Below are positions 6,365 to 64,000 of a DNA stretch of 64,000 bases, piece by piece. The translations under genes were made by a program, and so were the position numbers. The notes under the pieces were generated by a model, which worked only from the letters and a program-made list of their open reading frames with translations, ran no database searches and was not told where the DNA came from. This DNA comes from Sideroxydans sp. Its GTDB lineage: Bacteria; Pseudomonadota; Gammaproteobacteria; Burkholderiales; Gallionellaceae. The DNA lies in assembly GCA_028710605.1 (NCBI GenBank), contig JAQTTU010000005.1:62001-126000 (forward strand), written 5' to 3'. Each line of letters starts with the position of its first letter. The first letter of the stretch is position 1.

Positions 6365-7240
6365 ATGATTAAGGGAAGTATCGTAGCGATTGTTACGCCT
6401 ATGCATGAGGACGGCAGCCTGGATTTGGCGGCCTTCCGCGCGTTGATCGATTTTCATATTAGCGAAGGTACGGATGCCATCGTGGTGGTCGGCACCACCG
6501 GCGAATCCCCTACCGTGAATGTGGAAGAGCACGAGTTGCTGATTTCCGAAGCGGTAAAACATGCCGCCAAGCGCATTCCCGTCATCGCGGGAACAGGCGC
6601 GAATTCCACCAAAGAAGCGATCGAGCTGTCGACTTTCTCCAGGAAGGCCGGGGCAGATGCATCGCTCACTGTGGTGCCTTATTACAACAAGCCGACGCAG
6701 GAAGGCCTGTACCAGCATTTCAAAGCCATCGCCGAAGCGGTGGATATGCCGCATATTTTGTACAACGTGCCGGGTCGCACCGGTACGGATTTGAGCAACG
6801 ACACCGTGCTGCGTCTGGCGCAGATCAGGAACATCGTCGGCATCAAGGACGCGACTGGCGGCATCGAGCGCGGCAGCGATTTGTTGCAGCGCGCGCCCAA
6901 GGATTTTGCCGTTTACAGTGGCGACGATGCGAGCACGCTGGCGCTGATGCTGCTGGGTGCAGTGGGCACGATTTCGGTGACGGCCAATGTGGCTCCGAAG
7001 TTGATGCATGAAATGTGCGCTGCCGCGTTGAACGGTGACGTGGCCAAGGCGCGCGAGATCAATTTCCGTTTGCTCGGTTTGCACCGGAATTTGTTTGTGG
7101 AAGCCAATCCGATTCCGGTGAAGTGGGCGGTGTCGCGTATGGGCAAGATGAAAAATAATCTGCGCCTGCCGCTCACTCCGCTCTCCGCAGGATTTCAACC
7201 TGCAGTGGAAGCGGCGATGCGTCAGGCGGGTGTCATTTAA
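6365..7240 (+). CDS. dapA: 4-hydroxy-tetrahydrodipicolinate synthase
   Basis: 291 residues. The enzyme condenses pyruvate with aspartate semialdehyde, the first step of the lysine and diaminopimelate branch. With ATG 6365 the numbering matches the characterised enzymes: Y133 in [10 protein letters not shown] and Schiff-base lysine K161 in GIKDATG; the GTTGES loop is also intact. GTGAG at 6353-6357 is seven bases upstream; ATG 6359 is an alternative. The next gene, bamC, follows within 12 bases, the dapA-bamC order known from other proteobacteria. Confidence 0.97.
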
Positions 7241-7251
7241 TGGGAACGACA

Positions 7252-7839
7252 ATGAATACAAAGAACATCATGCTGGTGCTTGCCGCCATTTCGCTACTGG
7301 CCGGATGCGGGAGTTTCTTCGAGCGCAAGCAAGTGGATTACAAGGCCGGGGCGAAGGAAGTGCCGCCGCTGGAAGTGCCGCCGGACATGATGGTGCTGGC
7401 GACCGAACCGCGCTACACGATACCGGCAGCCGACGGCACGCAAGTGGCGAAATATTCCGATTTTTCGCGCGAAAAAGTGAGCGGGCTACCTGCGTCCGCT
7501 CCGGTCGTAGCACCGGCAATGGCCGATGCGGCTGCGGCGGCCAAGCTGCTGGAAGTGGGCGGCGTTCGCTTCATTCTGCTGAACGAATCGTTTGATCGCA
7601 GCTGGCGCAAAGTGGGGCTGGCGATGGATCGCGCGCGCATCGCCGTCGGCGACATGGACAGAAGCAAAGGCATCTATTTTCTGAAAGCCGCCGACAAGGA
7701 AAAGAAGTCGGAAGATGTGCAAGTGCTGGTGCATGAAGCCAACGGCACGACCGATGTGACGGTGAAGGAAGGCGGCAGCCTGAGCGGCAAAGAGACGGCA
7801 CGCGTGCTCGATGCTTTGTTTCAAAATCTGGAAAAATAG
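7252..7839 (+). CDS. bamC: Outer-membrane assembly lipoprotein BamC (NlpB)
   Basis: 195 residues with a lipoprotein signal: MNTKNIMLVLAAISLLAGC, lipobox LAGC with Cys 19. The N-terminal region after the lipidated Cys (VDYKAGAKEVPPLEVPPDM) is the extended unstructured segment seen in BamC, which packs against BamD in the BAM complex. A helix-grip-like C-terminal domain follows (FDRSWRKVGLAMDR...). I choose ATG 7252 with GGGAAC upstream; ATG 7240 overlaps the dapA stop and would lengthen the signal. It is about half the length of enterobacterial BamC and appears to keep only one C-terminal domain. Confidence 0.85.
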   Translation: MNTKNIMLVLAAISLLAGCGSFFERKQVDYKAGAKEVPPLEVPPDMMVLATEPRYTIPAADGTQVAKYSDFSREKVSGLPASAPVVAPAMADAAAAAKLLEVGGVRFILLNESFDRSWRKVGLAMDRARIAVGDMDRSKGIYFLKAADKEKKSEDVQVLVHEANGTTDVTVKEGGSLSGKETARVLDALFQNLEK

Positions 7840-7848
7840 TCCTCAGTG

Positions 7849-8613
7849 ATGCGTTTTGCCCTGCTCGGCAGCGGCAGTGAAGGCAACGCGTTGGTGGTTC
7901 AAGCTGGCGCGACTACGCTGCTGATGGATTGCGGGTTTTCGCTGAGCGAGACGTTGTTGCGCCTGGAACGATTGCAACTGCAAGCCGATCAGCTCGACGG
8001 CATTCTGGTTACTCACGAACACGGCGATCACATTGCCGGCGTAGCAAAACTCTCGCGCAAATTCGACATTCCCGTCTGGATGACCCACGGCACGTTGCGT
8101 TCGCAGAAAACCGCGTTCGACAAACTGGCGGTTAGCGAGATTAATCCGCACGATATTTTTTCTATCGGCGACATCGAAGTGCAACCTTATCTCGTTCCGC
8201 ACGATGCGGCAGAGCCAGTGCAATATGTGTTCGGCAACGGCGCAAGAAAACTGGGCGTGCTGACCGATGCGGGACATGTCACGCCGCACATCGAAGCGGT
8301 GCTGTCCGGTTGTCATGCGCTGGTTCTGGAATGCAACCACGACGCGGAAATGTTGCAAAACGGGCGTTATCCGTACAGTCTCAAGCAGCGTGTGTCCGGG
8401 CGTTTCGGGCATCTGAGCAACCGGCAGGCGGCAGCAATATTATCGCGTCTGGATAACCGCCAATTGCAGCACATCGTGGCGGCGCATTTGAGCCGCAAGA
8501 ACAATCTGGAAGAACTGGCCGTGGAAGCCTTGAGTGCGGTGCTGGGCGATGCTGCGGAGCGGATTGCGGTGGCGACACAAGCGCAGGGATTGGTCTGGCG
8601 CGAAATTGCGTAG
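7849..8613 (+). CDS. Metallo-beta-lactamase fold hydrolase (YycJ/WalJ-like)
   Basis: 254 residues with the MBL metal signature THEHGDHIAG, a downstream histidine in YLVPHDAAEP and an aspartate in GVLTDAGH. The overall pattern (MRFALLGSGSEGNALVV at the start, LECNHD and GHLSNRQAA late) resembles YycJ/WalJ-type proteins, some of which are DNA 5'-exonucleases. Substrate is not determined by sequence. The start is ATG 7849; a GTG three bases upstream is possible. It follows bamC by nine bases and probably shares the dapA transcript. Confidence 0.88.
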   Translation: MRFALLGSGSEGNALVVQAGATTLLMDCGFSLSETLLRLERLQLQADQLDGILVTHEHGDHIAGVAKLSRKFDIPVWMTHGTLRSQKTAFDKLAVSEINPHDIFSIGDIEVQPYLVPHDAAEPVQYVFGNGARKLGVLTDAGHVTPHIEAVLSGCHALVLECNHDAEMLQNGRYPYSLKQRVSGRFGHLSNRQAAAILSRLDNRQLQHIVAAHLSRKNNLEELAVEALSAVLGDAAERIAVATQAQGLVWREIA

Positions 8614-8634
8614 CGGCAAGGAGAATTGCAGACA

Positions 8635-8666
8635 ATAAAAAAGCCGACTTGCGTCGGCTTTTTTAT
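8635..8666. terminator. Bidirectional intrinsic terminator
   Basis: AAGCCGAC-TTGC-GTCGGCTT (8641-8660) with an A-run before and T-run after. It lies between the convergent MBL hydrolase gene and the small lipoprotein gene and can serve both. Confidence 0.88.
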
Positions 8667-8680
8667 TGAGCTGGTAAAGC

Positions 8681-8872
8681 TTACTTTGCGGCAGCAGGTG
8701 CAGCAGCTGCAGGAGCGGAAGCAGCTTCAACAGCGGAAGCAGCAGCAGGTGCAGAGGCAGCAACTTCAACAGCAGGAGCAGCAACCGGTGCGGCAGTAGT
8801 TTCAGCAGCTTTTTGGCCGCAAGCGGTCAGGGACAGAGCAAACAGGGCAGCAATCAGGGCAGTGAGTTTCAT
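8681..8872 (-). CDS. Small Ala/Pro-rich lipoprotein
   Basis: 63 residues. MKLTALIAALFALSLTAC is a lipoprotein signal with lipobox LTAC, followed by GQKAAETT and a low-complexity Ala/Pro/Val/Glu tail. Such proteins are common in this group and act as small envelope lipoproteins; no specific role can be assigned. The DNA is repetitive (GCAGCAG-type), so length may vary between strains. It ends at the shared terminator at 8635-8666. Confidence 0.7.
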   Translation of the reverse strand: MKLTALIAALFALSLTACGQKAAETTAAPVAAPAVEVAASAPAAASAVEAASAPAAAAPAAAK

Positions 8873-9001
8873 TTCGTTTCTTCCTATCGTTCAATAGAAC
8901 TACAACATTAAGTGAGGGTCAGTAAAGCAATACCTATGCAGCAACCCTCCCACTGCAAAAGGCGCGGCATTCTAGCAAGTCCTACAGGAAAAGCTAGTGG
9001 G

Positions 9002-9493
9002 TTACAACCCTAATTTTGTGGCGGTTGCGCCGGAGTGTGAGGATTGCCACATTTCCTGAAAACGCGCATTGAGCAGGCGCGCGCCCTCCGGGTCGTTTTT
9101 GGCGAGCAGGCCGCGCGTGTCGTCAAAGTGATAGCGGCGCACGTAATTTGCGTTGTCGGCTACGGCGAACGGATCGGTCACATTTTTCATGTGCGACGGG
9201 GTTTGGAAAATTGCCATGCTGTGGCTGAATTCGCGCAACAGCATCATCATGCGAGGGCAAAAGCGAACCAAGTGTTGCGTGTTGTGCGCCAGCAATTGCA
9301 GGCGGTTGTTCGGGCTGCCCAGAAGAAAACGGCGCAATACAACATAGCGCGCTTCGGAATTGAATCCCATATCGGAAAAATCATTTTCGAAGATATTCAG
9401 CGAGCGTTTTGCCGATGCACACACGTCGTCCAGCGCCGCGATGTAATCGGTCGCGCCGTCAAACAAGGTATGTTGCAGTGCGTCATCGTTCAT
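9002..9493 (-). CDS. Conserved protein of unknown function, downstream of cupin
   Basis: 163 residues, soluble, no signal peptide. The first half (FDGATDYIAALDDVCASAKR, then RRFLLGSPNNRLQLLAHNTQHL) recalls a phospholipase D-like alpha/beta unit, but no HKD motif is present, so I do not assign activity. The start ATG 9493 lies three bases after the stop of the upstream cupin gene, so the two are almost certainly co-transcribed. Confidence 0.75.
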   Translation of the reverse strand: MNDDALQHTLFDGATDYIAALDDVCASAKRSLNIFENDFSDMGFNSEARYVVLRRFLLGSPNNRLQLLAHNTQHLVRFCPRMMMLLREFSHSMAIFQTPSHMKNVTDPFAVADNANYVRRYHFDDTRGLLAKNDPEGARLLNARFQEMWQSSHSGATATKLGL

Positions 9494-9495
9494 AG

Positions 9496-10635
9496 TCAGC
9501 GTTGTTTTGCGGCTGTAGCGGGCGCGAGATAGCCGTCCAGATACCACTCGTAAAGCAGCGCCAAGACGGCTTGTGTCGGCTTGTCGGTGGCAGGCAGCGC
9601 GCGCGTGTCAGCCAGTTCGCGCAGCGTGCGGTAAGCCGCCTTGCTCAGCGGGTGGTCTTCACCGTTGATGAATACAGTACTGCCGAAGCATTGCATTTGT
9701 GTTTTCTTGTCCAGCACCACGCCGGATTTTCGCAGTGCTTGTGCAAATTTCGCTTCGCTCATTGGTCTGGCAGGAGTATCGAAGAAGATATGCGGCTTGG
9801 GGTCGCTCAAATAGCAGCCGAGGAAGTTGGCAACATCCTCATCGTCCCAGCGCACCTGGCGGATGGCTTGCGCGACTTGCTGCAACATGTCCGGCCCGAT
9901 CTCGGAAGGATGTTTTTGCAGTTTCAAATCCGGGTCGGCATACATTCCGTTCACGCAAATGCGGTCTTGCAGATAAACCAAGAACTGCTCCGCCAGCTCC
10001 TGATAGGCCGGCGTGCGGAAACCGATGGAATAGGTCATGCAGTTGTCGTCTTCGGCGATGCCGTTGTGGGCGCAGTGTGGCGGCAGATACAGCATATCGC
10101 CCGCTTCCAGCACCCATTCCTGTTCCACGCGAAAATCTTTCAGTACGCGCAACGGTGCGCCCTCGATCAGCGTTTGATCTTTTTGCGTGGAAATCTGCCA
10201 GCGCCTATGCCCGGTGCCTTGCAACAGAAATACGTCGTAAGCGTCAAAGTGCGGCCCAACCCCGCCGCCCTTGGGCGCGTAGCTCACCATCAGGTCGTCG
10301 AGACGTGCATGCGGGATAAAGTTGAACAGCTTGACTATGTCGGTTCCGGTTTGCAGGAAATGGTTGACACCCTGCACCAGCACCGACCACTTGGCTTTGC
10401 CGAAGTGCTGAAAGTCATTCGCGGTAAAAGGCGAATGCTGCAAGGTGAATTTGCCGCGCTGCTGCGTGACGATGCGCGCCTGCACATTCTCGTCGCAAGC
10501 CAGTTCGATCAACTGTTGGGGATTGAGCAAGCCCTTGAAGCCGGGCACCGCTTGGCGGATCAGCAAGGGTTTTTTTTGCCAATAACCGCGCAGGAATTGT
10601 TGCGGAGTCAGTCCGCCGAGTAAGGTATTTTTCAT
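9496..10635 (-). CDS. JmjC-type cupin, ribosomal protein hydroxylase-like (RoxA/YcfD)
   Basis: 379 residues. The Fe(II)/2-oxoglutarate site is visible as HFD in GVGPHFDAYDVFLLQG and a distal histidine in LYLPPHCAHNG, followed by a winged-helix-like C-terminal domain. The family includes E. coli YcfD/RoxA, which hydroxylates an arginine of ribosomal protein L16. Length and the N-terminal LLGGLTPQQFLRGYWQKKP segment fit RoxA well; substrate remains inferred. The ORF extends upstream, but ATG 10635 gives the usual N-terminus. It is divergent from bcp. Confidence 0.88.
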   Translation of the reverse strand: MKNTLLGGLTPQQFLRGYWQKKPLLIRQAVPGFKGLLNPQQLIELACDENVQARIVTQQRGKFTLQHSPFTANDFQHFGKAKWSVLVQGVNHFLQTGTDIVKLFNFIPHARLDDLMVSYAPKGGGVGPHFDAYDVFLLQGTGHRRWQISTQKDQTLIEGAPLRVLKDFRVEQEWVLEAGDMLYLPPHCAHNGIAEDDNCMTYSIGFRTPAYQELAEQFLVYLQDRICVNGMYADPDLKLQKHPSEIGPDMLQQVAQAIRQVRWDDEDVANFLGCYLSDPKPHIFFDTPARPMSEAKFAQALRKSGVVLDKKTQMQCFGSTVFINGEDHPLSKAAYRTLRELADTRALPATDKPTQAVLALLYEWYLDGYLAPATAAKQR

Positions 10636-58588: not shown

Positions 58589-58592
58589 GTTG

Positions 58593-58716
58593 AAAAACCT
58601 CACCACAGAGACACTGAGACACTGAGAAAGTCAAAAGCGAAACCGATCTGGGAATAACAATAGGTGTTTTGCATTGTTTTTCTCTGTGCCTCTGTGTCTC
58701 TGTGGTGAAAGGTTTT
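58593..58716. repeat. CACAGAGACACTGAG-type inverted repeat
   Basis: ACCTCACCACAGAGACACTG on the left, and GCCTCTGTGTCTCTGTGGTG on the right, form a long imperfect hairpin between hrcA and hemH. A similar CAGAG unit pair is at 32856. Confidence 0.72.
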
Positions 58717-58722
58717 AGGTTT

Positions 58723-59742
58723 TCAATGCTGTGACAGCGCATTGCTCAACAGCTTGGCCGTGATGTCCACAATCGGCACCACGCTCTCGTAGCTCATGCG
58801 TTTCGGGCCGACCACGGCGAGCGTGCCGACAATATTGCCGTCGGCGGTGTAAGGCGCGCTCACCACGCTGCATTCGTCCAGTCCGGCCAGCCCCGATTCG
58901 TGCCCGACGAAAATATGCACGCCCGGCGCGTGCCGTCCCGCATCCAGCAATTGCAGCAATTCGGTCTTCTGCTCGAACACGTTGAACAGGTTGCGCAACT
59001 GGTTCATGTTGGCGGAAAGGTCGTTGATGTGCAGCAGGTTGCGCTCGCCGCTGATGACGTAGTCCTCGCTCTTGCGCGCGATGGCCTCGTCGCTGGCGGC
59101 CATCGCCGCACTCATCAGCGCGGTCATGTCATGCTGCAACTGGCGCAGTTCGTTTCGCATGCGCCGGTGGATGTCGCCGAACGCCAGGTTGGCGTAATGC
59201 TGGCTCAGGAAATTGCCCGCCTCGGTGAGCTGCGCCTGGCTGTAGTCTTTGTGCGTCACCAGCACGCGGTTTTCCACTTCGCCGTCCGGCATCACGATGA
59301 TGAGCAGCACGCGTTTTTCCGACAGGCGCAGAAATTCGATCTGGCGCACGGTGATGGCGGCGCGTTTGGGCGTGGCGACCACCCCGGCGAAGCGGGTGAG
59401 ATCGGACAGCAGGTTGGAGGCCTGGGTCAACAAGCGCGTCGGATTGTTCGGCTGCAACTGGCTTTCCAGATGTTGCACGCGCGCCTCGGACAAGGGCTGC
59501 ACCACCATCAGGGTGTCGATGAACAAGCGGTAGCCCAGCGCCGTCGGCACGCGCCCGGCGGACGTGTGCGGGCTGGCGACCAGCCCCATCGTTTCCAGAT
59601 CGGCCATCACGTTGCGGATGGTGGCAGGGCTGACTTCCAGGCCGGAGAATTGCTGCAACGCGCGCGAGCCGACCGGCTGGCCGTCGCTGATATAGCGTTC
59701 TACCAGAGTCTTGAGCAGTACTTGTGCGCGGTCGTTTAGCAT
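58723..59742 (-). CDS. hrcA: Heat-inducible transcription repressor HrcA
   Basis: 339 residues. Winged-helix N-terminus (MLNDRAQVLLKTLVERYISD, SGLEVSPATIRNVMADLE) and the HrcA C-terminal region. It represses groESL and dnaK operons through the CIRCE element in bacteria that use it. No CIRCE site is visible beside it. ATG 59742 is used; a longer ORF upstream is not conserved-looking. Confidence 0.97.
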   Translation of the reverse strand: MLNDRAQVLLKTLVERYISDGQPVGSRALQQFSGLEVSPATIRNVMADLETMGLVASPHTSAGRVPTALGYRLFIDTLMVVQPLSEARVQHLESQLQPNNPTRLLTQASNLLSDLTRFAGVVATPKRAAITVRQIEFLRLSEKRVLLIIVMPDGEVENRVLVTHKDYSQAQLTEAGNFLSQHYANLAFGDIHRRMRNELRQLQHDMTALMSAAMAASDEAIARKSEDYVISGERNLLHINDLSANMNQLRNLFNVFEQKTELLQLLDAGRHAPGVHIFVGHESGLAGLDECSVVSAPYTADGNIVGTLAVVGPKRMSYESVVPIVDITAKLLSNALSQH

Positions 59743-59810
59743 GGCGGCGAATTCTAACATCCAGAATAAAACCGCATGGTTCATTAGCCCTAAGCCGGGG
59801 CCAATTAGGG

Positions 59811-59888
59811 TTTCACGCGGAGGCGCAGAGAAAAACAAAGCTGGCTGAGAGCCTATATCCTCCGTGCCCTCCGCGTCTCCGCGTGAAA
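59811..59888. repeat. CACGCGGAGGC inverted repeat
   Basis: TTTCACGCGGAGGCGCAGAG on the left, and TCCGCGTCTCCGCGTGAAA on the right, form a long imperfect hairpin in the 422-base gap 59743-60164 upstream of hrcA and the luxR-type gene. Copy G of family R1 and the luxR promoter fill the rest of this gap. Confidence 0.72.
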
Positions 59889-59957
59889 AAATCTTGTCGT
59901 GTTTTGACTTTATTTAACTGATAAGTGAATAAAACTGGATATTTTCAATGCCATTTG

Positions 59958-60031
59958 CCCCGCAAGCCGCGTCAATAGGCGATCCGCATGGTGCGAATGG
60001 TGGAGATGCCCGTATTTGCTGGCTTGCGGGG
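59958..60031 (+). repeat. Dispersed repeat family R1, copy G (most complete)
   Basis: CCCCGCAAGCC (59958-59968) and GGCTTGCGGGG (60021-60031) are perfect 11-bp ends around a core with GTCAATAGGCGATCCGCATG and GATGCCCGTATTTGCT. This shows the outer inverted ends of the unit, seen only in part in other copies. Confidence 0.82.
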
Positions 60032-60164
60032 AAGGTGTGTTTTGTAGAATGGCTTTACTTTCGCCGCGAAGCTGTATAGGTTTAGTATGCTGGTTGCATG
60101 GAGATTTCCGCCATTAACGGAAGCCGCTTAATTGTTTTGGATTTGCTCAGAAGGTGTGTAGCCT

Positions 60165-60887
60165 ATGAAGTCCATCGAACGTTTCACCACCTTATTGGAA
60201 TGCACTTCCGAAGAAGCATGGCGTAATTCCATTTTTCAACTGGGCAACGAATACGGTTTCGACCAGACACTGATCGCCGTTGTTTCCGGTCGCCCGACAT
60301 CGCTGGGTGATGCCTTTTTGTGCAGCAACTATTCTTCCCGATGGCTGGGCATTTACGACAGCTCGCAATTGCTCAACATCGACCCGACGGTCGCCCACTG
60401 CGTGACGCGTTCGACCCCGTTGATCTGGGAGCCTGCGGTATTCGCCCGAAAACAGCAAAAGGAAATGTACGAAGAAGCATGCAGCCACGGCCTGCGCTCG
60501 GGCATTTCGCTGCCATTTCATGGTCCCGGCGGCGAAATCGGCATCCTGTGCTTTGTGAATGACACGGAACCCAGCAAGCGATTTCAGCGGGACGCGTTGC
60601 ATGCCATGCCCGCGCTTTCAATGCTGCGCGATTTCGCGTTCGAATCCTCGTTGCGCTATGCCAAGCTGGGCAACCAGGAATCGCAACCCGCGCTGACGCG
60701 GCGCGAACTGGAATGCCTGAAATGGTGCGCTTCGGGAAAAACTTCCTGGGAAATTTCGCAAATTCTCCGTTGCTCTGAATCGGCCATCAACTTTCACTTC
60801 GGCAACCTGCGCCGCAAGTTCAACGCGACCTCGCGCAGGCAGGTCGTGGTCAAGGCGATTCACTACGGCCTGCTGCGTCCGCTCTAG
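60165..60887 (+). CDS. LuxR-type acyl-homoserine-lactone receptor
   Basis: 240 residues. The autoinducer domain has the ligand residues W60, Y64, D73, P74 and W88, each three positions from TraR W57, Y61, D70, P71 and W85, so it should bind an AHL. The C-terminal GerE-type helix-turn-helix is LTRRELECLKWCASGKTSWE. It is upstream of an RsaL-like gene and a LuxI-type gene, giving the las arrangement. It likely activates the two lux boxes at 61248 and 61996. Confidence 0.93.
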   Translation: MKSIERFTTLLECTSEEAWRNSIFQLGNEYGFDQTLIAVVSGRPTSLGDAFLCSNYSSRWLGIYDSSQLLNIDPTVAHCVTRSTPLIWEPAVFARKQQKEMYEEACSHGLRSGISLPFHGPGGEIGILCFVNDTEPSKRFQRDALHAMPALSMLRDFAFESSLRYAKLGNQESQPALTRRELECLKWCASGKTSWEISQILRCSESAINFHFGNLRRKFNATSRRQVVVKAIHYGLLRPL

Positions 60888-60907
60888 CCGGGATTGGTGC
60901 GCGCTCC

Positions 60908-61138
60908 TCAGGCTATTGCACGATTCGCAATAAATTTCCCCGGTTTGGCTTGTTGCAAATCGTGGTCGGTAATTTTTCCGTTCAAATAGAGCCGCAATAA
61001 TATGGCGATGGGCGACGGCATTTCCGATCCCATCTCAAAGCGGCTTCCTCTCGATTGGGTAACGCCGAACCTCGACCAGAACAGTGCCTGGCACTCGCGC
61101 CGTGATTTTCGATATTCACGCAAAATTTCAGGGCTCAT
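60908..61138 (-). CDS. RsaL-like repressor
   Basis: 76 residues. RRECQALFWSRFGVTQSRGS followed by RFEMGSEMPSPIA matches the helix-turn-helix of Pseudomonas RsaL (RESQ...FWSRFGISQSCGSRFENG), from memory. RsaL represses lasI to keep AHL at a steady level. Its gene lies between luxR and luxI and faces the other way, as in P. aeruginosa. ATG 61138 has AAGGAGAATT; the longer ORF is rejected. Confidence 0.88.
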   Translation of the reverse strand: MSPEILREYRKSRRECQALFWSRFGVTQSRGSRFEMGSEMPSPIAILLRLYLNGKITDHDLQQAKPGKFIANRAIA

Positions 61139-61247
61139 CAAAATTCTCCTTATCGTTTTCAATTGCACTTGGTGCGTTCAGCCTCGCTCAAGCGGTATCA
61201 AGGCGACACCCGCTTGCAAAATTCTGCATCAGTAATTCCCTTTCCAC

Positions 61248-61267
61248 ACCTGTCTGTTTGGATAGTT
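61248..61267 (+). promoter_or_regulatory. lux/las-type box upstream of the synthase gene
   Basis: ACCTGTCTGTTTGGATAGTT has CT-N12-AG and fits the las-type box consensus at all fixed positions I recall. It shares ACCT-N9-GATAG with the box at 61996. Its centre lies about 42 bases before a plausible start site near 61300. Confidence 0.75.
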
Positions 61268-61276
61268 ACGCGGATT

Positions 61277-61309
61277 ACCCATTCGGCATAGCTTCTATGC
61301 GTACTGGGT
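61277..61309. promoter_or_regulatory. Double palindrome, candidate RsaL operator
   Basis: ACCCA, four bases, GCATAG-CTT-CTATGC, four bases, TGGGT: two nested perfect inverted repeats symmetric about one centre (61293). It overlaps the expected -10 and start of the synthase transcript, just downstream of the lux box, as an RsaL repressor site would. Confidence 0.65.
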
Positions 61310-61339
61310 ATTTCATTCAACTGATCGGGAGGAAGGACA

Positions 61340-61930
61340 ATGGCTCAAAAGATAAAAATTCTGGCGCGCAAGGAATTTCAAAGCAAAGAGTTGTGGAGTA
61401 TGTACCGGCTGCGCGCCCAGGTGTTCAAGGAAAGAATGGGGTGGAGCGTGCCGGTGATGAGCGGCATGGAAATCGACGGCTTCGATGCGCTCGATCCTTA
61501 CTACATGCTGATCAGCGAAGCGGGCGGCAAGGTGCGCGGTTGCTGCCGATTGTTGCCCACGGAGGGGCCGTACATGTTGCGCGATACCTTCCCGGAATTG
61601 CTGCACGGCAAACCGGCACCGGAAGGCAAAGCTGTCTGGGAACTCAGCCGCTTCGCCATCGAAACTGACGGGACGCAGCATTTCGGCTTCGCCGATCTGG
61701 CGTTGGATTCGATGCGCGAAATGGTTTCGTTCGGCGACCGCATGGGCATCGCGCGTTTTGTCATCGTGACCACTACCGCGATCGAGCGCTTGTTGCGGCG
61801 CGCCGGAATCGCCATCACGCGTTTCGGTCCGTCCATTCGCATCGGCGTGGAAAACTCGGTGGCGCTCGAAATCAATCTCGGCGAACAAACCCACCTGGCG
61901 CTGTTCGGTGAAGTTCCGCAGGCGGCTTGA
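61340..61930 (+). CDS. LuxI-type acyl-homoserine-lactone synthase
   Basis: 196 residues. The conserved residues are in place: R25, F29, W35, E44 (commonly Glu at this site), D46, D49, R70, F84, E101 and R104. These form the SAM and acyl-ACP active site; the acyl chain cannot be predicted. GGGAGGAAGGAC lies before ATG 61340. The gene has its own lux box and palindromic operator. Confidence 0.94.
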   Translation: MAQKIKILARKEFQSKELWSMYRLRAQVFKERMGWSVPVMSGMEIDGFDALDPYYMLISEAGGKVRGCCRLLPTEGPYMLRDTFPELLHGKPAPEGKAVWELSRFAIETDGTQHFGFADLALDSMREMVSFGDRMGIARFVIVTTTAIERLLRRAGIAITRFGPSIRIGVENSVALEINLGEQTHLALFGEVPQAA

Positions 61931-61995
61931 TGCGTTGAATCTCACTCGCGCATGCGCATGAATTTTCTTCGTAGCACACGAGTGATCCGAATAAA

Positions 61996-62015
61996 ACCTA
62001 GCAGGTCAGATAGCT
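61996..62015 (+). promoter_or_regulatory. lux/las-type box upstream of the Cys-rich genes
   Basis: ACCTAGCAGGTCAGATAGCT has CT-N12-AG and shares ACCT-N9-GATAG-NT with the box at 61248. A -10-like GAATAA lies near 62035. It is 66 bases after the synthase stop and 214 bases before the Cys-rich gene, so it could start a separate quorum-controlled transcript. Confidence 0.72.
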
Positions 62016-62084
62016 ACGTTCTGGCCTGTTTTGTGAATAAATTGCACTCACTTCATTGCGCTGGAGGTGGGGGTTTTGCTTCCC

Positions 62085-62193
62085 GAAACCGGTGTTTCAA
62101 CCGGGCATTGGAGGCGGTCGGAAATGCAATATTTCACGAACGGAAACGGGGCGAATTTTGTCATGAAAAATCATGACATCACGGTTTTACCGT
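62085..62193 (+). other. Leader with three small hairpins
   Basis: In the 5' region of the gene at 62229: GAAAC-CGGT-GTTTC (62085-62098), GTCATGA-AAAA-TCATGAC (62160-62177), and ACGGT-TTT-ACCGT (62181-62193). If transcription starts near 62048 these lie in a 180-base leader and may stabilise or control the mRNA. The 62160 palindrome could also be a protein site. Confidence 0.5.
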
Positions 62194-62228
62194 TCAGCTG
62201 TTTCATCTCAATTTACAGGAGAACTCCA

Positions 62229-62642
62229 ATGGCAAAAAACGATAGTTTTGTCGATCATCTGATAGACGATCCGAGCAATATTCCCGACATGATTCTGCTC
62301 AACGGGTTTGAGGGAAAGTCCGCGCTGGAAGGCTATACCCGGCTTTATCTGAACGCGGTGCTCAACGAATATTACGAGATCCCGCAAGATGCGGTTTTGC
62401 ATTCTGTCGCGGCAAATGCGTCTTCCGCCCATCCGCTGACAACCACGTATCTCTGGTTGAAAGGCGATGCCGAGCTGATTCGCAAAGGCAAATCCGTTTC
62501 CGAAAAGAAAATGAAATTTCTTGTCGGCGATATTCAAAGCGCTCAGACCGGAGCTCCGCAGGTCGGTCCGACCGGCGTGCAAAATTGCACCCAGTCACCG
62601 CCCGTATGCGGCGATACCGCCTGGAAAGGATGTCCTGCATAG
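62229..62642 (+). CDS. Precursor-like protein with C-terminal Cys-rich GPTG core
   Basis: 137 residues. Residues 1-110 form a folded-looking domain (DDPSNIPDMILLNGFEGKSA, YTRLYLNAVLNEYYEIPQDA, TTYLWLKGDAELI) I cannot name. The last 25 hold one copy of the core seen in the next gene: GPTGVQNCTQSPPVCGDTAW then KGC. The layout is that of a leader-core peptide or of a small anchoring protein. AGGAGAAC precedes ATG 62229. It has a lux box upstream. Confidence 0.8.
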   Translation: MAKNDSFVDHLIDDPSNIPDMILLNGFEGKSALEGYTRLYLNAVLNEYYEIPQDAVLHSVAANASSAHPLTTTYLWLKGDAELIRKGKSVSEKKMKFLVGDIQSAQTGAPQVGPTGVQNCTQSPPVCGDTAWKGCPA

Positions 62643-62803
62643 GACAGAATTTTGTGTCTCCGGCGGGGATGATTTCCGCTCGGTATGCGAAGAATAGTGA
62701 GGAGTATCAAGGTGGCAAGTCTTGATTTGCCAGAATAAGACGAGGAATTTATCCCGCTTTGCAATGATTAATTATTTACCCAACTTCTTTGAAGGAGAAA
62801 TTC

Positions 62804-63742
62804 ATGTTCTCACAAGTTCCCAATTGCCCCACCGTAGCGCCGATGTGTCCTCCGATTTTGTCGGCTTATACCCACTGCCCTACCGTAGCTCCGATGTGTG
62901 CGGTAACTCAATGGCAGTGTCCGCCGCTCACCGTAACGACAACGATTCAACCCACCCACTTGCTGGGCTGTCCGAATACAGCGACTTGCCCACCCACCCA
63001 CATGCTGGGCTGTCCGAATACAGCGACTTGCCCACCCACCCACATGCTGGGTTGTCCGAATACAGCCACCTGTCCGCCCACCCACATGGCGGGTTGTCCG
63101 AATACGGCCACTTGTCCGCCAGTTGATATGGCGGCTGCGCAGGCACTAGTCGGCCCGACCGGGGTACAGGGCTGCACGCAATCTCCTGCCCAATGCGGCA
63201 ATACTGCATGGCAAGGTTGCATGGTTGGCCCGACCGGCACGCAGGGGTGCACGCAACTGCAAGCCGGATGCGTCGGCCCGACCGGATGGCAGGGCTGCGC
63301 GCAACCGCCCGCACAGGCGAATGTAGCAATGGCTGGTCCGACCGGCGTACAAGGTTGCACGCAGTCTCCCGCGCAATGCGGCAATACCGCGTGGCCGGGT
63401 TGTTTGGTTGGTCCGACCGGCACACAAGGTTGTACGCAACTGCAAGCCGGTTGCGTCGGTCCGACCGGATGGATGGGCTGCGCGCAACCTCCCGCGCAAG
63501 CCGGCACAATTCACCCGACGCTGTGGACTCAGTTATGCCCGACCAACATGCCGGGTTGCCCAGGTACTGCCACCTGCGGACAGGCCGGGATGGTCGGACC
63601 CACCGGGGTGCAGGGTTGCACGCAGTCTCCCGCGCAATGCGGCAATACCGCATGGCAGGGTTGCCCTCCGACTCACATGCTGGGCTGCACTTGTCTGCCC
63701 ATGACTGTGGGGCCGGTAATTACTGTAGCGGGGCAGTGCTAA
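62804..63742 (+). CDS. Cys-rich repeat protein with GPTG units
   Basis: 312 residues from ATG 62804 (GAAGGAG six bases upstream; TTG 62789 is rejected). It has 34 Cys, 7 Trp, 7 His, one Asp and no Lys, Arg or Glu. N-terminal CPTVAPMC occurs twice; then four 14-residue units PTHMLGCPNTATCP (50-105); then two 57-residue units (116-172 and 177-233), each GPTGVQGCTQSPAQCGNTAW..GC plus GPTGTQ and GPTGW parts; and a third partial unit (264-287). No signal peptide or known fold is visible. Candidates are a RiPP substrate, a metal-binding protein or a disulfide-linked matrix protein. Confidence 0.85.
   Translation: MFSQVPNCPTVAPMCPPILSAYTHCPTVAPMCAVTQWQCPPLTVTTTIQPTHLLGCPNTATCPPTHMLGCPNTATCPPTHMLGCPNTATCPPTHMAGCPNTATCPPVDMAAAQALVGPTGVQGCTQSPAQCGNTAWQGCMVGPTGTQGCTQLQAGCVGPTGWQGCAQPPAQANVAMAGPTGVQGCTQSPAQCGNTAWPGCLVGPTGTQGCTQLQAGCVGPTGWMGCAQPPAQAGTIHPTLWTQLCPTNMPGCPGTATCGQAGMVGPTGVQGCTQSPAQCGNTAWQGCPPTHMLGCTCLPMTVGPVITVAGQC
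62951..63118 (+). repeat. Four 42-bp tandem repeats, in frame
   Basis: Each unit encodes PTHMLGCPNTATCP with small changes (HLLG, HMAG). The copies differ by only a few bases, so copy number may vary between strains. They are coding repeats and not CRISPR: there are no unique spacers. Confidence 0.88.
63149..63664 (+). repeat. 183-bp-period repeats, GPTG-Cys units
   Basis: Units at 63149-63319 and 63332-63502, and a partial one at 63593-63664. Starts are 183 bases apart (61 residues). Each full unit holds three GPTG motifs and six Cys. The first part of the unit is also found once in the gene at 62229. Confidence 0.85.
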
Positions 63743-63756
63743 GCAAGCGGTAGTTG

Positions 63757-63790
63757 ACCTGGGGCAGCTTTGTTCTGCCCCAGGTTTTTT
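63757..63790 (+). terminator. Strong intrinsic terminator after the Cys-rich gene
   Basis: ACCTGGGGCAG-CTTTGTT-CTGCCCCAGGT, a perfect 11-bp stem, is followed by TTTTT. It lies 15 bases after the stop. The next gene starts 48 bases further on, so it is read from its own promoter or by partial read-through. Confidence 0.9.
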
Positions 63791-63838
63791 GTGTTCGCTT
63801 GCTTGCCGTCAGCTGTAATACACATAAGGGAAACCCGC

Positions 63839-64000
63839 ATGTTTTTAACCGCATCAAATCTGGTTCATTACCTGCTGGCGCGCGGCTTGGTAGGCGCAGA
63901 CACTGTGGTGGACGGCGATTTTAGGGTGGCCGAAGTCGGCCGCCGCAACCGGAATTACAAAGTCATTCTGAAGAACGGCAACGGGCTGTTCGTCAAACAA
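63839..64000 (+). CDS. Phosphotransferase-like protein, N-terminal part (partial)
   Basis: 54 residues before the window ends, without stop. FLTASNLVHYLLARGLVGAD is followed by RRNRNYKVILKNGNGLFVKQ, which looks like the N-lobe of an aminoglycoside-phosphotransferase-like kinase fold, with the ATP-binding lysine in FVKQ. ATAAGGGAAA precedes ATG 63839. It may modify the Cys-rich product or carry out unrelated kinase work; the call is tentative. Confidence 0.55.
   Translation, partial: MFLTASNLVHYLLARGLVGADTVVDGDFRVAEVGRRNRNYKVILKNGNGLFVKQ

What the first reader, a model, noticed from the sequence alone, without database searches (positions are those of the whole stretch)
60165..64000. Quorum-controlled Cys-rich peptide/protein locus with no obvious described match
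A complete las-like module (receptor, RsaL-like repressor, LuxI-type synthase) is followed by two genes sharing a GPTG-Cys core, and then a kinase-like gene. A lux-type box stands in front of the Cys-rich genes. Seen directly: gene order, boxes, repeats. Inferred: the signal switches on production of a modified, metal-binding or cross-linked Cys product. I know of no described system with this composition, though I could not search.
Basis: partly seen in the sequence, partly recalled or inferred. Interest (0 to 1): 0.92.

Follow-up and report, generated by a model that had tools for sequence, protein, structure and literature searches.

The report
Quorum-linked giant lanthipeptide gene cluster
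An iron-oxidiser-like bacterium carries, next to its cell-to-cell signalling genes, an enzyme set of the kind that stitches peptides with sulfur bridges, but the likely target is an unusually large repeat protein with 34 cysteines instead of the usual short peptide.

Summary
The anatomy is real. LuxR, an opposed RsaL-like repressor and LuxI are followed by two co-directional genes sharing a GPTG-Cys core. Past the window edge, the "kinase-like gene" proves to be the first of three lanthipeptide synthetase genes: APH/LxmK-type kinase, HopA1-type lyase, LanC cyclase. So this is a class V-type (Vb-like) lanthipeptide cluster, a described kind.

The likely substrate is unusual. One gene (137 aa) has a leader plus one core. 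The other is a leaderless 312-aa repeat protein with 34 Cys, 52 Ser/Thr and no Lys/Arg; 33 of 34 Cys can be paired with a distinct Ser/Thr 2-6 residues upstream. The same five-gene order occurs in a Magnetococcales MAG, and another genome puts a different Cys-repeat protein before the same enzymes.

Quorum genes and cluster form one block of about 14 kb between hrcA and tetR-acrA, which are adjacent in 5 of 27 relatives. luxI and HopA1 occur in the same 2 of 34 genus genomes. The Magnetococcales MAG has no luxI, so quorum control looks locally recruited. Metal binding is disfavoured. No product or expression is shown.

The parts
60165..60887 (+). LuxR-type AHL receptor/regulator, 240 aa
   Evidence: PF03472 9.8e-33 and PF00196 1.8e-19; dN/dS 0.10 against G017
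60908..61168 (-). RsaL-like HTH repressor, opposed to luxI; likely start ATG near 61138 (by reading)
   Evidence: PF22495 6.6e-22
61250..61269 (+). candidate lux-type box 71 bp before luxI
   Evidence: 13 of 20 positions shared with the box at 61998; CTAGCTGTTTGGATAGTTAC in G017
61340..61930 (+). LuxI-type AHL synthase, 196 aa; the only PF00765 match at E <= 0.001 in the genome held
   Evidence: PF00765 1.5e-32
61998..62017 (+). candidate lux-type box (TAGC-N10-GCTA) 212 bp before GPTG1
   Evidence: TAGC-N10-GCTA also in G017; not beyond chance in the window alone
62229..62642 (+). GPTG1: 137-aa precursor-like protein, leader of about 105-111 aa plus one GPTG-Cys core
   Evidence: homologue 92% in G017, leader protein 35% in Magnetococcales; no Pfam/NCBIfam family at E <= 1
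62804..63742 (+). GPTG2: 312-aa leaderless Cys/Thr repeat protein, 34 Cys, no Lys/Arg; proposed multi-ring lanthipeptide substrate
   Evidence: counterpart in G017 and Magnetococcales; no Pfam/NCBIfam family at E <= 1
63839..64000 (+). start of the APH/LxmK-type kinase (complete in L002 5839-6951); HopA1 lyase (L002 6948-7958) and LanC (L002 8127-9380) follow past the window edge

Best explanation
This is a biosynthetic island of a Sideroxydans-group bacterium: an AHL quorum circuit placed in front of a class V-type lanthipeptide cluster. Proposed working: LuxI makes an AHL; LuxR with AHL binds lux-type boxes before luxI and before GPTG1; the RsaL-like protein damps luxI. The run GPTG1-GPTG2-kinase-HopA1-LanC is then transcribed. 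The kinase (LanK) phosphorylates Thr/Ser, the HopA1 protein (LanY) eliminates phosphate to give Dhb/Dha, and LanC adds Cys thiols to close (methyl)lanthionine rings, many of them T-x4-C. GPTG1 is a leader-bearing substrate with one core. GPTG2 is a leaderless protein-sized substrate of up to about 33 rings.

Shown by sequence: genes, families, catalytic motifs, conservation, block position, Cys/Thr pattern. Inferred: AHL control, substrate identity, ring formation, and any role for the GPTG1 leader in presenting GPTG2.
For: Kinase: PF01636 8.6e-13, NF038156 LxmK 2.2e-27, with HGDMKWDN and DWE. HopA1: PF17914 9.4e-37; its R172, K203, R213 and Y220 have nearly the spacing of CaoY R187/K219/R229/Y236 as printed in PMC9486802. 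LanC: PF05147 6.7e-61 with WCHG and LCHG.
Same order leader protein-repeat protein-kinase-HopA1-LanC in Magnetococcales, at 35-50% identity for the leader protein and the three enzymes; G017 has the first four and the start of LanC.
GPTG2: Ser/Thr at -5 of Cys in 21 of 34 (shuffle mean 5.7, 0 of 1000); Cys matched to a distinct Ser/Thr 2-6 upstream in 33 of 34, G017 31 of 32, Magnetococcales 47 of 47 (0 of 300 shuffles each).
luxI and HopA1 in the same 2 of 34 genus genomes; hrcA and tetR-acrA adjacent in 5 of 27 relatives, about 14.8 kb apart here.
Against: No product, expression or AHL has been seen. The kinase is far below the LxmK equivalog cut-off (96 against 315 bits), so it is a distant relative. 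The shuffle tests ignore the internal repeats of GPTG2, and Ser/Thr at +3 is as unlikely under them as -5 (16 of 34, 0 of 1000), so -5 is not unique. The G644 repeat protein does not show the -5 pattern (3, shuffle mean 5.0) but -3 (16 of 34), and pairs only 20 of 32 Cys. The single GPTG1 core pairs 3 of 3, but so do 31 of 300 shuffles. Lux boxes are not beyond chance in the window alone. No luxI in the Magnetococcales MAG. GPTG2 has no recognisable leader, and no transporter or leader peptidase was identified among the island proteins scanned. The two Sideroxydans-group genomes are close, so the luxI co-occurrence may be one event.
Confidence: 0.72

Rival explanations
1. GPTG1 alone is the lanthipeptide precursor; GPTG2 is an unmodified Cys-rich protein (metal-binding, disulfide-linked or structural) that shares the core by duplication.
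For: Only GPTG1 has a leader; GPTG2 is extremely Cys-rich.
Against: 33 of 34 and 47 of 47 Cys have a distinct Ser/Thr partner upstream; in Magnetococcales the GPTG core is in the large protein and the leader protein lacks it; G644 has a large Cys-repeat protein directly before the same enzymes.
Confidence: 0.15
2. GPTG2 is a multicore precursor that is cut into many small lanthipeptides (antibiotic or signal), not one large product. (A variant of the best explanation, not exclusive of it.)
For: Many repeat units hold complete Thr-Cys pairs; multicore precursors are mentioned for other RiPP families (search listing only).
Against: By eye no conserved cleavage site stands out between units; no Lys/Arg at all; no peptidase identified among the island proteins scanned.
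Confidence: 0.35
3. The quorum genes are accidental neighbours; the lanthipeptide cluster is not under AHL control.
For: No luxI in the Magnetococcales MAG, and in G644 two luxI-type genes on another contig than the cluster; boxes not significant in the window alone.
Against: luxI and HopA1 in the same 2 of 34 genus genomes; one block between hrcA and tetR-acrA; candidate boxes conserved in G017 before both luxI and GPTG1.
Confidence: 0.25
4. Metallothionein-like metal-binding product, as the first reader partly inferred.
For: High Cys content in a host group known for iron oxidation (the lifestyle is recalled).
Against: Three lanthionine synthetase genes directly downstream; Cys spaced mostly 5-9 residues apart with a single CxC.
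Confidence: 0.05

Closest known systems
Class V lanthipeptides (cacaoidin, lexapeptide, pristinin A3): LanK/LanY
   Same: APH-type kinase plus HopA1-type lyase encoded together (PMC9486802, parts 1 and 2 of 5 read)
   Different: No flavin cysteine decarboxylase for AviMeCys among the 8 downstream proteins scanned; not an actinobacterium; a LanC is present; one substrate is 312 aa and leaderless, whereas the precursor collection in PMC9486802 took only ORFs shorter than 110 residues
Class Vb lanthipeptides (SmoA/SmoC, LanC-dependent)
   Same: LanK + LanY + LanC set; no AviMeCys (from the review PMC12328550, section 7 read; the original Pei et al. paper is not held)
   Different: The review places class V in actinobacteria; here a protein-sized repeat substrate and AHL genes in a Pseudomonadota genome
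HopA1-LanC cluster families 11/20 and 22 (PMC8153245)
   Same: [quoted passage not shown] proposed as a lanthionine synthetase (section 16 and passages read)
   Different: Their peptides were gathered as short peptides; the logos are figures I could not see, so identity with GPTG1 cannot be excluded
LuxR-linked biosynthetic clusters of Proteobacteria (PMC5872303)
   Same: LuxR/LuxI next to a biosynthetic cluster; lanthipeptide is named among the cluster types (section 5, part 1 of 2 read)
   Different: No class V type, Sideroxydans or GPTG protein is named in the part I read
las/rsaL-type quorum module (recalled from Pseudomonas)
   Same: luxR, opposed rsaL-like gene and luxI in order
   Different: Followed by a lanthipeptide run

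Membership tests
Class V lanthipeptide cluster (LanK/LanY) | APH-type Ser/Thr kinase (PF01636, LxmK-like) | tested here: met
   PF01636 8.6e-13; NF038156 2.2e-27 but 96 bits against a 315-bit equivalog cut-off
Class V lanthipeptide cluster (LanK/LanY) | HopA1-type phospho-Ser/Thr lyase with catalytic Arg/Lys/Arg/Tyr | tested here: met
   PF17914 9.4e-37; R172, K203, R213, Y220 match CaoY spacing by reading, no alignment to CaoY was made
Class V lanthipeptide, Vb subgroup | LanC cyclase with zinc ligands | tested here: met
   PF05147 6.7e-61; WCHG and LCHG motifs; that these are the zinc ligands is recalled
Class V lanthipeptide, Va subgroup | flavin cysteine decarboxylase for AviMeCys | tested here: not met
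   none among the 8 downstream proteins scanned
Class V lanthipeptide cluster (LanK/LanY) | short precursor with N-terminal leader and C-terminal core | tested here: inconclusive
   GPTG1 has leader plus core (137 aa); GPTG2 (312 aa) has no leader
Class V lanthipeptide cluster (LanK/LanY) | (methyl)lanthionine product | not testable with these tools
   needs mass spectrometry
LuxR/LuxI AHL quorum sensing | AHL-binding LuxR and AHL synthase LuxI | tested here: met
   PF03472, PF00196 and PF00765 above cut-off
LuxR/LuxI AHL quorum sensing | lux box at the regulated promoter | tested here: inconclusive
   conserved candidate boxes; 5 of 500 shuffles as good in G017, 73 of 500 in the window
LuxR/LuxI AHL quorum sensing | AHL made and AHL-dependent expression | not testable with these tools
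   needs culture or a reporter
Metallothionein-like protein | CxC/CxxC clusters | tested here: not met
   Cys spacing mostly 5-9, one CxC
Metallothionein-like protein | metal binding | not testable with these tools
   needs purified protein

The most novel reading that the evidence does not exclude
A natural split-precursor lanthipeptide: the leader sits on a separate small protein (fully separated in Magnetococcales, still fused to one core in Sideroxydans) and guides the kinase/HopA1/LanC enzymes in trans onto a leaderless protein of 300-460 residues. Nearly every Cys of that protein becomes a thioether ring, giving a covalently ladder-stitched polylanthionine protein that is made on a quorum signal, perhaps as an extracellular or surface material.
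Probability: 0.35. Interest if true: 0.87.

Novelty: new variant of a known kind. Interest (0 to 1): 0.72.

Why it matters
Lanthipeptides are usually short peptides (general knowledge). If class V-type enzymes here process a leaderless 312-residue protein with about 33 rings, the size limit and the leader rule of these enzymes both change, and a genetically encoded thioether-stitched protein material becomes available. The precursor collection in PMC9486802 took ORFs shorter than 110 residues and the RiPPER survey in PMC8153245 gathered short peptides, so such substrates could be missed by design (my inference). The two-gene precursor set makes the leader-in-trans question directly testable in E. 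coli.

Tried and rejected
Metal-binding reading: rejected as the main one, see rivals. Insertion next to a tRNA: no tRNA in L002. Known RNA family in the long GPTG1 5' region: none at the gathering threshold over 59700-64000.

Leader structure: AlphaFold2 on three sequences gave mean pLDDT 45.6, so no fold search was made.

Wider family searches: GPTG1 in 60 other relatives, only G017; in 299 phylum genomes, own and G548, plus G710 and G582 at E 0.007-0.009, taken as chance; nothing in plasmids. GPTG2 nothing in plasmids or viral contigs; the G644 Cys-repeat protein nothing in plasmids. HopA1 alignment in genome contigs found 2 loci, both already known, with two short patterns only, so distant relatives could be missed; none in viral contigs. 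Leader alignment in 369 class genomes gave only the own genome below E 1e-3 (three others at E 0.0026-0.0095 carry stop codons).

Deinococcus sp. QL22 ORF before the kinase as a leader homologue: hhalign E 2e-4, probability 46.5, but hmmsearch E 0.055 among 1650 ORFs, with an unrelated ORF scoring higher. Kept as a lead only.

Literature (open-licence PubMed Central only; the listings were capped): GPTG with LuxI and RiPP, no paper; class V with HopA1, 7 of 8 listed; HopA1/LanC/lanthipeptide, 30 of 40 listed; class VI, 6 of 7; Sideroxydans/quorum sensing/LuxI, 12 of 1,855 listed, nothing pertinent; multicore, 12 of 13; leader in trans or leaderless, 15 of 84; lanthipeptide with AHL terms, 5 of 5 and 16 of 18; HopA1 with Proteobacteria, 3 of 3. 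None of these listings shows this locus; apart from the papers named as read, and passages of PMC9415263 and PMC10604976, I saw titles and abstract starts only.

Rows dropped before counts: two weak PF00765 matches below the cut-off (G008, G027) were not counted as luxI. In one search, 27 of the 29 genomes with hrcA were compared; the own genome and G017 (contig cut inside hrcA) were left out. Of the 27: 18 have nadK next, 5 tetR-acrA next, 4 neither (L053, L063, L064, L067; L067 has a weak TetR-like ORF, 33% identity); none has a luxR match. The output was cut in its middle, so its rows for part of L049, for L021, L048 and L032, and the head of L033 are unseen; what I say about L021, L032 and L033 rests. 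G557 and G252, with HopA1-family matches, gave no kinase, HopA1 or LanC relative at E 1e-4.
Full report
What is there. The window is G000:C7:62001-126000, and the finding sits at its right edge. I fetched the continuation (L002 = C7:120001-139000, so L002 position = window position minus 58000). In order: LuxR (60165-60887 +), RsaL-like HTH (60908-61168 -), LuxI (61340-61930 +), GPTG1 (62229-62642 +), GPTG2 (62804-63742 +). Past the edge come an APH-type kinase (L002 5839-6951), a HopA1-family protein (6948-7958) and a LanC-like protein (8127-9380). After these come a Nif11-type leader peptide (9613-9888), a PoyD-type epimerase, a B12 radical SAM methyltransferase, a phosphatidylserine decarboxylase-like protein and a 5'-nucleotidase-like protein.

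The synthetase. The kinase matches PF01636 (8.6e-13) and NF038156 LxmK (2.2e-27; 96 bits, below the 315-bit equivalog cut-off). The next protein matches PF17914 HopA1 (9.4e-37), and the third PF05147 LANC_like (6.7e-61) and the C-terminal part of the LanM model (302.9 bits, cut-off 304). The kinase has HGDMKWDN and DWE; LanC has WCHG and LCHG. In the HopA1 protein R172, K203, R213 and Y220 lie at nearly the spacing of CaoY R187, K219, R229 and Y236, the first three of which were tested by mutation in PMC9486802; this is a reading, not an alignment to CaoY. In PMC9486802 the APH kinase CaoK and the HopA1 protein CaoY dehydrate the cacaoidin precursor (parts 1 and 2 of 5 read). PMC8153245 found a phosphotransferase beside HopA1 in 96% of cases and LanC near or fused in 20% (section 16 read). 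The review PMC12328550 calls LanC-dependent members class Vb (section 7 read). The enzyme set is therefore a described kind.

The substrates. GPTG1 (137 aa) has a leader of about 105-111 aa and one core. GPTG2 (312 aa) has no recognisable leader, 34 Cys, 47 Thr, 5 Ser, no Lys/Arg and one acidic residue. Ser/Thr stands at -5 of Cys in 21 of 34 (shuffle mean 5.7; 0 of 1000 as high). In Magnetococcales it is 29 of 47 (mean 12.9; 0 of 1000). Other places are enriched too: +3 in GPTG2 (16; 0 of 1000) and -4, +3, +4 and +5 in Magnetococcales (0 or 1 of 1000), as expected when repeats are shuffled away, so -5 is not singled out by these numbers. Allowing any distinct Ser/Thr 2-6 residues upstream, 33 of 34, 31 of 32 (G017) and 47 of 47 (Magnetococcales) Cys can be paired, with 0 of 300 shuffles as good in each; the single GPTG1 core pairs 3 of 3 (31 of 300 shuffles as good). 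The shuffles break the internal repeats, so the p-values overstate independence; however, several different unit types (GPTGVQGC, NTAWQGC, PTHMLGC, TVAPMC) share T-x4-C. No Pfam or NCBIfam family matches GPTG1 or GPTG2 at E <= 1.

Relatives. G017 (L010, a 7.2-kb contig) has LuxR, LuxI, GPTG1 (92%), GPTG2 (91%), kinase (93%), HopA1 (95%) and the start of LanC; dN/dS is 0.04-0.13 in the six compared. In G644 the same three enzymes (34%, 32%, 40%) directly follow a protein of about 390-450 aa made of CKHVMWTAGCTFAG and CGNVLTTLACTLA units, to which GPTG2 has no blastp match at E 1e-4. There Ser/Thr is enriched at -3 (16 of 34) and not at -5 (3), and 20 of 32 Cys pair upstream (5 of 300 shuffles as good). 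Four plasmid relatives (Deinococcus, Rhizobium, Pseudonocardia, Aliiroseovarius; LanC fused to HopA1 in the first three) each have a small ORF before the kinase, found by annotation or, in Deinococcus, by ORF listing. The family is rare; counts include the own genome where it was searched: HopA1 in 2 of 34 genus genomes, 2 of 399 order genomes, 1 of 48 genomes of G548's class and 4 of 329 phylum genomes.

Quorum link. PF00765 above cut-off occurs in 2 of 34 genus genomes, the same two that have HopA1. hrcA was found in 29 of 34. In the 27 compared, nadK is next to hrcA in 18, tetR-acrA in 5, neither in 4, and luxR in none. In G015 the order is hrcA, 100 bp, tetR, acrA, nadK, the order of the own genome without the block. 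LuxR to the 5'-nucleotidase (about 14.2 kb) is therefore one block, inserted here or lost elsewhere. Its G+C is 0.555 (60165-64000) and 0.518 (kinase to methyltransferase) against 0.575 for the window. Candidate lux boxes stand 71 bp before luxI and 212 bp before GPTG1 and are conserved in G017. The unsupervised dyad-pair test supports them in G017 (5 of 500) but not in the window (73 of 500). A scan of the own genome with a pattern drawn from the boxes gave five sites at up to 2 mismatches, these two among them; its backward control had 44 sites, so this is no independent test. The Magnetococcales MAG has no luxI (82% complete), and G644 has two on another contig. PMC5872303 names lanthipeptide among LuxR-linked cluster types.

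Reading. The best-supported mechanism is AHL-controlled production of lanthionine-stitched GPTG proteins by a LanK/LanY/LanC set. Whether GPTG2 stays one large product or is cut, and whether the GPTG1 leader acts in trans, is open. Nothing here shows expression or chemistry.

Noticed in passing
L002 9613-13484 (past the window edge): A second RiPP set in the same block: Nif11-type leader peptide with a Gly/Ser/Val-rich tail without Cys, PoyD-type epimerase (469 bits) and rSAM_ocin_1 methyltransferase (560 bits).
   Followed up: partly
L002 13499-14836: Phosphatidylserine decarboxylase-like protein (PF12588, PF02666) at the end of the RiPP genes; role unclear.
   Followed up: no
L047 6588-7940: Large Cys-repeat protein (CKHVMWTAGCTFAG units) directly before kinase/HopA1/LanC in G644: a second, different protein-sized candidate substrate.
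   Followed up: partly
L033 6693-6935: Aliiroseovarius crassostreae plasmid: 80-aa leaderless ORF with three C..V.FTA.C units before kinase, HopA1 and LanC.
   Followed up: partly
L032 7214-7819: Deinococcus sp. QL22: ORF not listed in the plasmid gene table, before the kinase, with a Cys-rich tail and a weak leader resemblance.
   Followed up: partly
window 58590-58720 and 59810-59900: Two hairpin-like inverted repeats seen by eye, between hemH and hrcA and upstream of hrcA; four of the five motif strings tried occur once each in the window and one not at all, genome copies not counted.
   Followed up: no
L034 12765-14996: Rhizobium johnstonii plasmid: an annotated lantibiotic dehydratase about 2.4 kb after the HopA1-LanC fusion gene.
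   Followed up: no
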